From Balneolaceae bacterium (GTDB lineage: Bacteria > Bacteroidota > Rhodothermia > Balneolales > Balneolaceae), in assembly GCA_009711805.1 (NCBI GenBank), contig VEMX01000043.1:1-60412 (forward strand): a stretch of DNA of 60,412 bases. The letters are read 5' to 3'. Under the pieces are notes generated by a model, which searched no databases, was not told the DNA's origin, and was given only the letters and a program-made list of their open reading frames with translations. The translations under genes and the position numbers were made by a program. Below, one piece after another: positions 7,250 through 51,136 of the stretch. The stretch's first letter is position 1. Every line of letters starts with the position of its first letter.

Positions 7250-7317
7250 AAATGAGGATTTATAATTAAATAATGAATTCTTATAATCCTATATCAATTT
7301 TAACGAGCAGGAATACT

Positions 7318-7593
7318 ATGAAAAAATTCTTACTTATTTTTACCACATTATTCTTATTAACAATAATGCCTTTCAACAAGATAACTAATGCTCAGGACCC
7401 TGGATGGTTCGGAACCAGATATACTTGTGCTACTGATCATTGTGATATTCGTTTATACCAGAATGAAGTATTTTTTATTTATTGGGAACTTGAGGTACGA
7501 TGTCTCAATGACAGTGGTAATTATGTAAGAGGTTCTTATTCTGGAAGTGGAGTCTATCCAGGTTCTCTATGTAATGGTGCTGTTGCACTGTAA
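7318..7593 (+). CDS. Small secreted peptide with four cysteines
   Basis: A 91-residue product with a Sec signal peptide (MKKFLLIFTTLFLLTIMPFNKITNAQ, cleavage about residue 26). The mature part is about 65 residues with four Cys (YTC, DHC, VRC, SLC) and is Gly/Ser/Tyr-rich near its end. The frame is open from 7273, but the ATG at 7318 starts exactly at the signal peptide. I do not recognise the family. Its position directly before a 6-bladed propeller lipoprotein recalls Bacteroidota NVEALA-type peptides, although the NVEALA motif itself is absent. Compare the analogous gene at 48655. Confidence 0.55.
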   Translation: MKKFLLIFTTLFLLTIMPFNKITNAQDPGWFGTRYTCATDHCDIRLYQNEVFFIYWELEVRCLNDSGNYVRGSYSGSGVYPGSLCNGAVAL

Positions 7594-7605
7594 ATAAGAC
7601 TAAAT

Positions 7606-8655
7606 ATGAGAATATTAGCACTATTTTTGGCAGGAACTATATCAACAGTTCTAACCTTGATAAGTTGCAATACTCCGAATGAAAGGCAGGTTGAAACTTA
7701 TATAGCAAGTTTGTCAGAGGTGGATGATCTGAAACAGAGGGTGAATTTGTTAGATATTCAAGAGCCATACCTCCTTTCATTCTTTTCTACCATACAGGCT
7801 GCAAAAGGTGGATTAGTTTTGACACCAGCTACATCTTCATCCGAAATTGCACTGTTAAATTTAAGCCATACGGATCAGCAGATATGCTGCCCCACCTTAT
7901 CTTCTCTGGCCGTAAAAGGCAGAGGACCGGGGGAGGTGAAGGGAATATCATCAAGCACCAAGAGCATTTTCTCAGACACTTTGATATTTTACTCCCTTAT
8001 TGATGCCAAATTTTTACTCTACAACAAAAACCTGAGATTAATTGATGAATGGCTTTTCAGCCAGAGAAAATTAACAATAAGTGGTAATTTTGCTTACGGA
8101 AATAGAAAACTTATAATCCCAACTACTCCGAGGAGTAACAATGGTTATCTGCTAAATATTTATGATGTGGGAACGGGAAAAAGTATCAATGCAATACCGG
8201 CCCGGGTGCCGACAGGCTATCAACCGGCGGTCAGGAATTCTATTTCAGCAATAGCGGCAACTCCAGAGTATATCGTACTTGCATTTGTTGGTGACAGGGA
8301 ATTTCAGGTATTGAACTACGCTGGGAAGTTAGTAGGCAAGATTAGAATGGGGAAGAACGATCCTATAGGTGAACCTTTTCAGATACAAAATCCAATGCAT
8401 GCTCCTAAAGGTACTGAATATATCCCTAAAATAGAATATTATAATCGCCACCTGGTGGTGCTGTACAATACAAAATTACTACTGTTTGAAATGCGGGATT
8501 TTGAGCTTAAAAAGCAGTTAACTTTTTATTCAGGTGGAATAGAAGAAGAAGCTTTGAAGATATCAGATTTCAGTATTGGTGATGGACTTTTATATCTCCG
8601 CAGTGGAAGAAGTAAGCTTTACAAAGCCCCCATAAATCAATTCTGGAAAGATTAG
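7606..8655 (+). CDS. BF3164-like 6-bladed beta-propeller lipoprotein
   Basis: A 349-residue protein with a lipoprotein signal (TLISC, lipidated Cys 21). The body has features of the TolB-like/BF3164 propeller family: LAVKGRGPGEV (the (G/A)-x-G-x-GPGE motif), repeated I-Y-D/L-Y-N blade ends and a late IPKIEYYNRHLVVLYNTKLLL blade. It probably faces the periplasm or cell surface. It follows the four-Cys peptide gene by 12 bp, so the two are likely co-transcribed. The same pairing recurs at 48655-50031, and in both propellers the lipidated Cys is residue 21. Confidence 0.7.
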   Translation: MRILALFLAGTISTVLTLISCNTPNERQVETYIASLSEVDDLKQRVNLLDIQEPYLLSFFSTIQAAKGGLVLTPATSSSEIALLNLSHTDQQICCPTLSSLAVKGRGPGEVKGISSSTKSIFSDTLIFYSLIDAKFLLYNKNLRLIDEWLFSQRKLTISGNFAYGNRKLIIPTTPRSNNGYLLNIYDVGTGKSINAIPARVPTGYQPAVRNSISAIAATPEYIVLAFVGDREFQVLNYAGKLVGKIRMGKNDPIGEPFQIQNPMHAPKGTEYIPKIEYYNRHLVVLYNTKLLLFEMRDFELKKQLTFYSGGIEEEALKISDFSIGDGLLYLRSGRSKLYKAPINQFWKD

Positions 8656-48654: not shown

Positions 48655-48921
48655 ATGAATATTTTTAAAATTACGGGGATTTTATTATTCCTTATTATCT
48701 TATTTTGTAACCTACAAATAACATCTGATAGCTATGAGATAAGCTTTACCGGTGAAAAGGCATACGCTCATTTTGGTGAGGTCACTTGTTACTCAATGTA
48801 TGAGAGTGACTGTGGTTTTTTTGAAGATTGCTCAAATTTCTACGATTGTGGACCTTGTACAATGGTTGATAATTTCAGTGATTGGCAAGCACCCGGACAT
48901 TGTGCATATACTCAAGAATAG
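48655..48921 (+). CDS. Small secreted Cys-rich peptide (NVEALA-like)
   Basis: An 88-residue protein with a hydrophobic N-terminal signal (ITGILLFLIILF). The mature part has six Cys (VTC, SDC, EDC, YDC, GPC, GHC) and is acidic and aromatic. Size, a GEKAYAHFGE stretch before the first mature Cys, and its place directly before a BF3164-type propeller gene recall NVEALA-type peptides of Bacteroidota, although the motif itself is not conserved. Export followed by disulfide formation is likely. Function unknown. Confidence 0.6.
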   Translation: MNIFKITGILLFLIILFCNLQITSDSYEISFTGEKAYAHFGEVTCYSMYESDCGFFEDCSNFYDCGPCTMVDNFSDWQAPGHCAYTQE

Positions 48922-48987
48922 ACCAGGTCTTAAAACAAGGCAGGGACAGAAATCCCTGCCATTATATATTAATTTTATCTTAATGAA

Positions 48988-50031
48988 ATGAATAGGTACG
49001 TTTTATTTATCAGCGCTTTTATTATACCAATGTTTGTATTTGTTAGCTGTAATTCAGCAAATAATGATGTCACAAGCATTAAAGCATTAAATCCTGTCAA
49101 TGCATCAGTTACTGAAGCTTATACTTTACAAGAAAATGATGTCCCTATAAATCCTTTGGATATCTTAAATTTAAATGACAAATATTTGATTGTTATAAAT
49201 AAAAAAGATCAAGGGGTGTTTAGGGTTTACAGTCTTCCAGAATTAGATTATCTATATTCATGGGGACGAATGGGCAGGGGACCTGATGAACTTTCATTTG
49301 TCTCTTTGTCGCAAATTAATACCAATTCATCAGGACTTATCTTATTAGAAAATGCAATAGCACAGCTCAAACATTATGAAATTAATGACACGGGTTTTGT
49401 CTTAAAAAAGAAAGCCAATCTGGCTTACCCTACCAAAAAACAACCTTTCAATAATCTTATACGAGTAAATGATAGTACATATTATGCTCGGTATGGATAT
49501 GATAAGACAACAGATAAGGAGTTTATAGCCCTTCGACCAGAATTTAATGAAGCACTATTTACTTTTGGAAAATATCCCGGTGGTTCAGATTTAACAGGAG
49601 CAGCTCGTTCTCAGAAATATTCAAAAATATCCACTGCACAACCTCAAGGAAAACTCTTTGCCTCCTTTTATCGATCTCTAAATCAATTCAAGATATTCAA
49701 TGATCGTGGAGACCTGGTAAGAAATATTTCAATAGATGATGAATATATATCTGAAGCATCAAGTGATGACTTTATTTACAGAGCATATGTTACCTCTACA
49801 AATAAACATATTTACACATTAGGGGTTTTCAATACAGAAGAAAAGTTAAGTCAAGATCCTGATAATTTTTCACCTATGATTGGGGTTTGGTCATGGGAGG
49901 GTAAGCCGATTAAAAGACTTAAAATAGATCAAAAAATTCATCGCTTCGCTGTTTCAGATAAATATGAAACGCTTTATGGATTTTCAATATTTGATCCATC
50001 TAAAATATATACATACAAGTTAGATCTTTAA
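48988..50031 (+). CDS. BF3164-like 6-bladed beta-propeller lipoprotein
   Basis: A 347-residue protein with a lipoprotein signal (VFVSC, Cys 21), then repeated blades. The diagnostic WGRMGRGPDELSFVSLSQI carries the GRGP(D/G)E motif, followed by NNLIRVNDSTYYARYG, TFGKYPGGSDLTGAARSQKYS and a terminal KIYTYKLDL. It belongs to the TolB-like/BF3164 group and is related in architecture to the protein at 7606-8655. It starts 66 bp after the Cys-rich peptide and is followed 4 bp later by the fasciclin gene, so it is in the same operon. It is very AT-rich compared with neighbours. Confidence 0.75.
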   Translation: MNRYVLFISAFIIPMFVFVSCNSANNDVTSIKALNPVNASVTEAYTLQENDVPINPLDILNLNDKYLIVINKKDQGVFRVYSLPELDYLYSWGRMGRGPDELSFVSLSQINTNSSGLILLENAIAQLKHYEINDTGFVLKKKANLAYPTKKQPFNNLIRVNDSTYYARYGYDKTTDKEFIALRPEFNEALFTFGKYPGGSDLTGAARSQKYSKISTAQPQGKLFASFYRSLNQFKIFNDRGDLVRNISIDDEYISEASSDDFIYRAYVTSTNKHIYTLGVFNTEEKLSQDPDNFSPMIGVWSWEGKPIKRLKIDQKIHRFAVSDKYETLYGFSIFDPSKIYTYKLDL

Positions 50032-50035
50032 ATCT

Positions 50036-50569
50036 ATGCGACCATTATTATTAACCCTTTTCCTTTCCCTACTTCTTAATTCGTGTATGCAGGATAAGAA
50101 ACCTGTCCCACAACAAAATCCAGAAGTTCCAAATAATATTATGTCTGAAGAAATGACCATTCTGGATTTTATTTCAGAGAAAGAAGATTTCTCGAATTTC
50201 TTACACCTTATAAAACATGTAAATCTTGACGATACTTTAGACCAAGAAGGTTCCTTTACATTGCTAATACCCTCTAATAAAGCAATGGATAAAATTTCTC
50301 CTGAAAAGATTGAATATCTTCTAAAAAAAGAAAACAAAGGGTTACTTACTGAAATTATAGAGCTACATTTTGTAAGGGAAAAATATAGATTAAATGAGTT
50401 AACGAATAAGCAAGAATTAAATACATTTCGCCCAACATCTAATATTCACGTCAGAATAAAAGAGAACTCTTTAACCCTCAGCCAAGGCATACCAGTTAAC
50501 TCATTTGTCGGTTTCAGTAATGGAAATATCATCGTTGTTGACAGAATACTTGTTCATTTAACAATTTAA
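50036..50569 (+). CDS. Fasciclin (FAS1) domain lipoprotein
   Basis: A 177-residue protein with a short signal and lipobox (LLNSC, Cys 17), then one FAS1 domain: TILDFISEKEDFSNFLHLIKHVNLDDTLDQEGSFTLLIPSNKAMDKI (H1 region), IIELHFV, and a late NGNIIVVDRILV. FAS1 domains mediate adhesion or ligand binding at the cell surface. It lies 4 bp after the propeller gene and 12 bp before the CxxC protein gene, so it belongs to the same operon. Confidence 0.75.
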   Translation: MRPLLLTLFLSLLLNSCMQDKKPVPQQNPEVPNNIMSEEMTILDFISEKEDFSNFLHLIKHVNLDDTLDQEGSFTLLIPSNKAMDKISPEKIEYLLKKENKGLLTEIIELHFVREKYRLNELTNKQELNTFRPTSNIHVRIKENSLTLSQGIPVNSFVGFSNGNIIVVDRILVHLTI

Positions 50570-50581
50570 AAACACCTTCAT

Positions 50582-51136
50582 ATGAAGAAATCAACTTTTA
50601 TTTTTATCACATCTTTGCTCATACTATTAAATGTTTCTTTACTCTTTCAGGTATCTCATTTGAATAATAAAGATGACAATAGTTCCAATGCTATAGAAGT
50701 TTTTGATAAATGGGGCCTGGAAAGTATCGGTACAAGCCATGCAAAGATCAATCATTCTGAAATTGAAATTCCTGATTCAGGTATCTTTTTTGTTGTGGTA
50801 ATGACTGATGTTGGCTGCAGCTCATGTATGGTAAATGAAATACGCTTGTTAAATAAGCTTTATAATGATTTTCCCAATAAAATTGATGTTTATCTCCATT
50901 CTAATAGTGATTCCTATTTAGAACAATATAATAATACATTTCCTGTGCAAGTAATTTCAAATAAAGAAAACATTCTTGACAATGGTTTTGAGTTTACAAA
51001 CCCTGTAGGTCTCATTATAGACTCTAATAAATTAATTCAGGATATACACCTCGCAAAACCTGAAAACCCAGGCAATCGAAATTTTTATTACAAAAAGATA
51101 AAATCATTGTTTAACTCATTAAAAACAAAAACATAA
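50582..51136 (+). CDS. Membrane-anchored thioredoxin-like protein (CxxC)
   Basis: A 184-residue protein with an N-terminal hydrophobic anchor (about 5-22) and a thioredoxin-like fold. Strand and active site are FFVVVMTDVGCSSCMVNEIRLL with CSSC at 79-82, followed by helix and strands to NPVGLIIDSNKLIQDIHLAKP, where the Pro after the strand fits the thioredoxin cis-Pro region. It is probably a periplasmic thiol reductase or oxidase. As the fourth gene of the Cys-rich peptide operon, it could shape the disulfides of that peptide (inference). Confidence 0.7.
   Translation: MKKSTFIFITSLLILLNVSLLFQVSHLNNKDDNSSNAIEVFDKWGLESIGTSHAKINHSEIEIPDSGIFFVVVMTDVGCSSCMVNEIRLLNKLYNDFPNKIDVYLHSNSDSYLEQYNNTFPVQVISNKENILDNGFEFTNPVGLIIDSNKLIQDIHLAKPENPGNRNFYYKKIKSLFNSLKTKT

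What the first reader, a model, noticed from the sequence alone, without database searches (positions are those of the whole stretch)
48655..51136. Four-gene secreted Cys-rich peptide operon with its own envelope thiol protein
A 6-Cys secreted peptide is followed by a BF3164-like propeller lipoprotein, a FAS1 lipoprotein and a membrane-anchored CSSC thioredoxin-like protein, with gaps of 66, 4 and 12 bp. All four carry export signals and all are much more AT-rich than the neighbours. Peptide-plus-propeller pairs are known in Bacteroidota (NVEALA and BF3164 families), but their role is unknown, and I know of no described unit with this FAS1 and CxxC complement. A plausible reading is a matured, disulfide-bonded surface or signalling peptide with dedicated folding, binding and display proteins.
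Basis: partly seen in the sequence, partly recalled or inferred. Interest (0 to 1): 0.75.

Follow-up and report, generated by a model that had tools for sequence, protein, structure and literature searches.

The report
Secreted disulfide-peptide cassette with propeller partner
A bacterium carries about a dozen copies of a small gene cassette that makes a short exported cysteine-rich peptide together with a protein that can shape its disulfide bonds and a propeller protein that appears to match the peptide; the same logic recurs in gut Bacteroides, but no paper we could search describes it.

Summary
In detail: four co-directional genes lie at 48655-51136, with the stated gaps, six cysteines in the predicted mature peptide, four export signals and 31.6% GC against 43%. 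The unit is not unique. This genome holds at least 12 peptide+propeller cassettes, 10 of them with a membrane-anchored Trx-like gene, and relatives hold more. Of 30 assessable Trx genes found by profile, all sit next to a propeller and 25 next to a short TM-plus-Cys peptide. The FAS1 gene is an accessory seen only here.

New findings: mature peptides almost always have an even number of cysteines (35 of 36; 36 of 36 if one membrane Cys is excluded). A strong RNA hairpin separates peptide and propeller genes (z<-3 in 19 of 26; controls 1 of 42). Sister cassettes add a catalytically intact signal peptidase I, MauE and a small AraC regulator. Bacteroides NVEALA loci show the same parts and hairpin. 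Peptide cores track their propeller, not their Trx.

Best reading: a precursor-peptide cassette in which peptidase and Trx mature a disulfide-bonded secreted peptide, and the propeller is its specific partner. The peptide's target (signal or bacteriocin) is unknown.

The parts
48655..48921 (+). Precursor-peptide gene, 88 aa: hydrophobic segment (about residues 3-20), about 20-residue spacer ending in AYA (residues 36-38), then a mature part of about 50 aa (HFGEVTCYSM...) with six Cys
   Evidence: homologous in leader and core to the Fodinibius roseus peptide and grouped with four cassette peptides in A4
48769..48918 (+). Predicted mature, disulfide-bonded peptide (inferred cleavage after A38)
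   Evidence: AxA between leader and Cys core in most of the family and even Cys number in 35-36 of 36 peptides; cleavage itself not shown
48939..48960 (+). Intercistronic RNA hairpin GGCAGGGA-CAGAAA-TCCCTGCC between peptide and propeller genes (attenuator or mRNA-stabilising element)
   Evidence: mfe -16.1 kcal/mol, z -2.8 against dinucleotide shuffles; structure without sequence conservation in 19 of 26 cassettes against 1 of 42 control gaps
48988..50031 (+). Six-bladed beta-propeller lipoprotein, PF15869 (TolB_like); proposed specific partner of the mature peptide
   Evidence: E 6e-14; confident propeller model, best PDB matches NHL propellers and B. fragilis BF0058
50036..50569 (+). FAS1/fasciclin lipoprotein, PF02469; accessory gene found only in this cassette
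   Evidence: E 7e-22
50582..51136 (+). Membrane-anchored TlpA/ResA-like thioredoxin-fold protein
   Evidence: further paralogues in the genome
50816..50827 (+). CSSC active site (C79, C82) of the Trx-like protein
   Evidence: both Cys invariant in the seven own-genome paralogues, with N140-P141 at the cis-Pro place

Best explanation
The cassette makes and matures a small secreted peptide. (1) The peptide gene is transcribed first; a hairpin after it attenuates or protects the transcript, so the peptide is made in excess of the downstream proteins (inferred from a conserved structure). (2) The pre-peptide is inserted in the inner membrane by its hydrophobic leader and cut at AYA by a signal peptidase I. 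In sister cassettes that enzyme is encoded in the cassette; here it must come from elsewhere in the genome, for instance from the short-type enzyme on contig C10 (inferred). (3) In the periplasm the membrane-anchored Trx-like protein forms or reshuffles the disulfides of the Cys-rich core, three in this peptide (inferred from CxxC, the fold and Cys parity). (4) The propeller lipoprotein is the peptide's own partner: it binds it as carrier, receptor or immunity protein (inferred from synteny and covariation). (5) The released peptide acts outside the cell, most likely in antagonism or signalling between neighbours. FAS1 is an extra surface protein picked up by this copy.
For: Co-occurrence: a Trx profile search gave 30 assessable loci, all 30 with a propeller next to the Trx and 25 with a peptide (C10 peptide). 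Propeller genes have a peptide-like ORF just upstream in 43 of 73 cases, control genes of the same loci in 15 of 220 (Fisher p 2e-19). Cys parity: 35 of 36 peptides have an even number of Cys after the membrane segment; the exception is the window's, whose odd Cys sits at the edge of that segment. Hairpin between peptide and propeller genes: z<-3 in 19 of 26 against 1 of 42 control gaps (p 3e-10), and in 7 of 11 NVEALA gaps. Signal peptidase I (PF10502) in the cassettes of G066, G068, G074, G017 and own contig C10, with invariant Ser, Lys and DSR box. MauE in the C10, G017 and G068 loci. Trx: first active-site Cys in all 30 (24 CxxC, 6 CxxS/Q/R). Mature-peptide distances follow propeller distances (r 0.69; 0.60 with Trx held constant) and not Trx distances with propeller held constant (-0.07). 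NVEALA loci of Bacteroidaceae carry PF15869 propellers, CxxC lipoproteins and signal peptidase I.
Against: No experiment shows export, cleavage or disulfides. The peptide part of the joined AlphaFold model is disordered (pLDDT about 30) and docks nowhere. The window cassette has no signal peptidase gene of its own. Six of 30 Trx proteins have lost the second Cys, so ordinary CxxC catalysis cannot be essential in every cassette. The peptide-propeller covariation falls to r 0.18 (p 0.002) with ranks and to p 0.06 after thinning close relatives, 0.004 with Cys masked. Counting sequences as independent overstates the parity and hairpin p values.
Confidence: 0.68

Rival explanations
1. Bacteriocin-like weapon: the peptide kills or inhibits close relatives, and the matching propeller lipoprotein protects the producer (immunity by sequestration).
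For: Many divergent copies per genome, AT-rich cassettes with patchy distribution, hypervariable Cys-rich cores that track the propeller. In own contig C86 the peptide before a propeller has a GG leader just under the TIGR04149 RiPP cut-off and hits bacteriocin-like leader models, with C39-peptidase fragments beside it. RND pumps often lie next door.
Against: No dedicated exporter through the outer membrane in most cassettes; no activity known; propellers are not known immunity proteins; several cassettes per genome would have to be maintained at once.
Confidence: 0.35
2. Signalling: the peptide is a secreted pheromone sensed through the propeller lipoprotein, with the small AraC or LuxR protein as output.
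For: Stand-alone AraC HTH (PF12833) directly beside cassettes in L063, L066, L040, L103, L106, L229 and L231 (a like frame in L239), and a LuxR HTH in L107; excess peptide synthesis implied by the hairpin.
Against: No transmembrane sensor in the cassette to carry a signal from a lipoprotein to a cytoplasmic HTH protein; the window copy has no regulator beside it.
Confidence: 0.25
3. Envelope-stress or redox unit: the peptide is an internal substrate or sensor of envelope thiol status, and the propeller is a general periplasmic scaffold; nothing is secreted.
For: Trx and MauE association; the published iron-stimulon table for B. thetaiotaomicron lists a 6-bladed propeller (BT0664) and, three locus tags on, a signal peptidase I (BT0667) (PMC10434189).
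Against: Signal-peptidase genes and Cys parity fit a processed, oxidised product; cores are hypervariable, unlike a sensor of a general condition. Of the two genes only BT0664 has a low p value in that table.
Confidence: 0.15
4. The peptide ORF is a spurious reading frame, and the unit is only a propeller plus Trx.
For: The window peptide is short and has no database family.
Against: Homologues with conserved leader and core in four other loci, Cys parity, the enrichment test and the hairpin placed after the ORF.
Confidence: 0.03

Closest known systems
NVEALA (PF14055) peptides with BF3164/TolB_like (PF15869) propellers of Bacteroides
   Same: Same propeller family; same order of leader, AxA and Cys-rich part; related leaders (hhalign 94%, score 42 against 20-23 for control anchors); nearby CxxC Trx-like lipoprotein and signal peptidase I; hairpin after the peptide gene
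   Different: The window peptide and its nearest relatives have no NVEALA match up to E 10; the Trx here is a membrane-anchored single domain, there a lipoprotein often fused to DUF1573; FAS1 only here; the window cassette lacks signal peptidase
GG-leader RiPP and bacteriocin precursors of Bacteroidota (TIGR04149, C39 export)
   Same: Cys-rich short precursor beside the same type of propeller in contig C86 of this genome
   Different: The window peptide has a TM leader and AxA site, no GG motif and no C39 transporter
TlpA/ResA/DsbE membrane-anchored thiol-disulfide proteins
   Same: Fold, CxxC, cis-Pro place, N-terminal anchor
   Different: Matches no Pfam thioredoxin family; tied to a peptide gene, not to cytochrome maturation
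MauE/MauD pair of methylamine utilisation
   Same: Sister cassettes carry MauE (PF07291) in place of, or beside, the Trx
   Different: No methylamine dehydrogenase genes seen in the loci; peptide, propeller and signal peptidase instead

Membership tests
NVEALA peptide family (PF14055) | Match to the family profile above cut-off (27 bits) | tested here: not met
   No match for the window peptide or nine relatives up to E 10; no match at E 0.001 anywhere in G000
NVEALA peptide family (PF14055) | TM leader, spacer, NVEALA-type AxA, short Cys-rich tail | tested here: met
   Layout met (EKAYA in the NVEALA place); leaders related by profile comparison with controls
NVEALA/BF3164-type locus | Peptide gene followed by a PF15869 propeller | tested here: met
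   Window propeller PF15869 E 6e-14; propeller beside an NVEALA gene in L148 PF15869 E 1e-81
NVEALA/BF3164-type locus | Linked signal peptidase I | tested here: not met
   Absent from the window cassette; present in the own C10 cassette, G066, G068, G074, G017 and NVEALA loci
TolB_like propeller (PF15869) | Profile match above cut-off and propeller fold | tested here: met
   52.4 bits against cut-off 29.2; model matches NHL six-bladed propellers and BF0058
Thioredoxin fold, TlpA/ResA type | Fold, CxxC at helix start, cis-Pro, membrane anchor | tested here: met
Thioredoxin fold, TlpA/ResA type | Thiol-disulfide exchange activity | not testable with these tools
   needs an enzyme assay
Fasciclin (PF02469) | Profile match above cut-off | tested here: met
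   78.4 bits against 22
Bacteriocin or RiPP precursor | GG or other known RiPP leader, modification or C39 export gene | tested here: not met
   No NCBIfam hit; none of these genes in the window cassette
Bacteriocin or RiPP precursor | Antagonistic activity with cognate immunity | not testable with these tools
   needs a killing assay

The most novel reading that the evidence does not exclude
A phylum-wide, undescribed class of secreted disulfide-bonded peptides (bacteriocin-like or pheromones) in Bacteroidota, with a dedicated maturation kit (signal peptidase I, Trx or MauE), an attenuating hairpin, and a beta-propeller lipoprotein that is the peptide-specific receptor or immunity protein, present in a dozen versions in one genome and also in gut Bacteroides.
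Probability: 0.4. Interest if true: 0.87.

Novelty: new variant of a known kind. Interest (0 to 1): 0.68.

Why it matters
NVEALA and BF3164 genes have been catalogue entries without a role; the open library searched here has no paper that mentions NVEALA and one that names BF3164. Tying them to a disulfide protein, a signal peptidase, a regulator and a conserved hairpin turns two unknown families into one testable system, in environmental Balneolaceae and in human gut Bacteroides. If the peptides are released, they are a large unseen set of natural disulfide-rich peptides with built-in maturation enzymes and matched binding proteins.

Tried and rejected
Direct Pfam and NCBIfam hits for the peptide and Trx: none. 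A scan of the named genome collection with the window propeller found nothing; with A7 it found three loci, among them Fodinibius roseus. Sequence search of the PDB for the Trx gave only a weak hit (8t4c, E 0.019). Docking of the peptide on the propeller in one joined chain failed. FAS1 as a core part was rejected. Mobility by flanking repeats: the intergenic flanks have no copy in the other own-genome loci examined. Sigma-70 promoter scan: no more sites than in shuffles. Literature searches for this combination gave nothing relevant apart from one transcriptome table.

Full report
What is there. The four ORFs are real and exactly placed. They form a stand-alone + strand unit between a divergent M14 peptidase gene and a convergent PD40 gene. 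The propeller belongs to PF15869 and the third gene to PF02469; the peptide and fourth gene match no Pfam or NCBIfam family. The fourth protein has the thioredoxin fold: AlphaFold pLDDT 84.8 with most of the globular part above 90, and Foldseek matches to DsbE, ResA, StoA and CcmG. Its two active-site Cys are conserved in all seven own-genome paralogues aligned, with an invariant Asn-Pro at the cis-Pro position. GC is 0.316 against 0.432 +/- 0.032 for windows of the same size.

It is one of many. Searching the window's own genome with the Trx protein alone gave paralogues that turned out to lie next to propellers and short Cys-rich peptides. With the PF15869 search and an enlarged Trx profile the genome shows at least twelve peptide+propeller cassettes: contigs C20 (window), C18, C10 (two), C55, C50, C40, C47, C2, C9, C35 and C81. 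Ten of these also have a Trx-like gene (all but the second C10 cassette and C81). Every one of ten other own cassettes measured is poorer in GC than its flanks (0.31-0.38). In the class the Trx profile is patchy: 18 of 245 genomes. Of 30 Trx loci that could be assessed, all 30 have a propeller gene adjacent and 25 a peptide gene; four have none visible and one is cut by a contig end (the C10 peptide is missed by the automatic criterion but seen). One seed of the profile (C47) had been chosen for its context; the others were found by Trx sequence.

Controls on chance. Under one fixed peptide criterion, 43 of 73 propeller genes and 15 of 220 other genes in the same loci have such an ORF within 300 bp upstream (p 2e-19). 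The cysteines after the membrane segment are even in number in 35 of 36 peptides; the one odd count is the window's, because Cys18 lies at the membrane boundary. The Cys spacings differ widely, so the parity is not one inherited pattern, but the 36 are not fully independent.

A structural element nobody had flagged. The gap between peptide and propeller contains a strong stem-loop: 48939-48960 here, -16.1 kcal/mol, z -2.8 with dinucleotide shuffles. With mononucleotide shuffles, 19 of 26 cassettes have z below -3, against 1 of 42 same-strand gaps of like length between ordinary genes of these loci (Fisher p 3e-10). The sequences of the stems differ, so structure is kept, not sequence. The same element lies after the NVEALA gene in 7 of 11 Bacteroidaceae gaps. 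In known precursor-peptide operons such a hairpin lets the peptide be made in excess of the proteins that process it (established knowledge; here inference).

Sister cassettes supply the missing parts. In G066, G068 and G074 a signal peptidase I gene follows the Trx gene (PF10502, E 1e-28 to 3e-37). In own contig C10 (L229) and in G017 (L231) the order is MauE, peptide, propeller, signal peptidase, with a small AraC HTH gene at one end. Ten such peptidases, including those of Bacteroidaceae, keep the catalytic Ser, the Lys and the DSR box. In most of these peptides the AxA lies some 12-30 residues after the hydrophobic segment, farther than in ordinary signal peptides, which may be why a special peptidase is kept. 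The window's genome has three S26 enzymes: the long type on C64, the C10 one and one on C63.

Link to NVEALA. Bacteroidaceae-type loci found with PF14055 carry NVEALA peptides, PF15869 or PF17170 propellers, CxxC lipoproteins (Thioredoxin_8-like, partly fused to DUF1573) and signal peptidase I. The Fodinibius roseus peptide (L102, named through) bridges the two sides: 38% identity over the leader to an NVEALA peptide and leader-plus-core similarity to the window peptide. The profile comparison of window-type and NVEALA peptides scores 42, controls with other membrane anchors of the same loci 20-23, and NVEALA with its post-leader columns permuted 30-34. So the leaders are related, but the window peptide fails the PF14055 test and is not filed as NVEALA.

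Who partners whom. Over 24 complete cassettes the distance between mature peptides follows the distance between propellers (Mantel r 0.69; 0.60 with Trx held constant, p 0.0005), while mature peptide and Trx are unrelated once propeller is held constant. With rank statistics the effect is smaller (0.18, p 0.002), and with one member per close group p is 0.06, or 0.004 with Cys masked. This is modest support for the propeller as the specific partner and the Trx as a generic tool. A joined AlphaFold model gave a good propeller and a disordered peptide, so no contact was seen.

FAS1. Among 29 FAS1 relatives examined in other Balneolaceae loci none has a propeller or Trx of this kind beside it, and no other cassette has FAS1. 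It is an accessory of this copy.

Mechanism and limits. Shown by computation: the parts, their co-occurrence, Cys parity, the hairpin and the catalytic residues of linked peptidases. Inferred: cleavage at AYA, three disulfides made or shuffled by the Trx, binding by the propeller, action outside the cell. Open: what the peptide does. Antagonism is slightly favoured over signalling because of copy number, hypervariability and the GG-leader relatives in contigs C86 and C9, but neither is shown.

Noticed in passing
L229, L231, L239, L241/L068, L242/L104, L244/L063, L246/L102: A conserved RND1-MFP-RND2 efflux operon is a hotspot for these cassettes in several genera of the family, although genomes have only about 12-23 RND matches each. 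Functional link or insertion hotspot not resolved.
   Followed up: partly
L032 4931-6241; L037 3577-5522: Two cassettes of the same genome pair a propeller with a Cys-rich peptide that has a GG-type instead of a TM leader: C86 with C39-peptidase fragments and a TIGR04149-like leader, C9 followed by a split DsbA/thioredoxin-like gene.
   Followed up: partly
L063 3259-3591, L066 2848-3180, L040 2594-2902, L103 1991-2446, L106 2520-2897, L229 6143-6463, L231 7797-8186, L239 3746-4078: Stand-alone AraC-type HTH proteins of 100-150 aa, with no other domain found, sit beside these cassettes.
   Followed up: partly
L064 3426-5161; L103 2531-4531: Cassettes whose peptides have only two Cys have a Trx that lost the second active-site Cys (CGNS, CEKS).
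   Followed up: no
L148 3804-4667; L147 6496-7365: CxxC lipoproteins in NVEALA loci combine a weak Thioredoxin_8 match with DUF1573.
   Followed up: no
L003 3800-4021: A second Cys-rich peptide frame in the C18 cassette lacks an in-frame ATG, GTG or TTG start before its hydrophobic segment; it may be broken.
   Followed up: no
window 7273-8655: ORF 7273-7593 meets the same peptide criterion just upstream of the 349-aa ORF 7606-8655; its nature was not examined.
   Followed up: no
L065 3993-5089: The propeller gene of the G013 C4 cassette is split over two overlapping frames.
   Followed up: no
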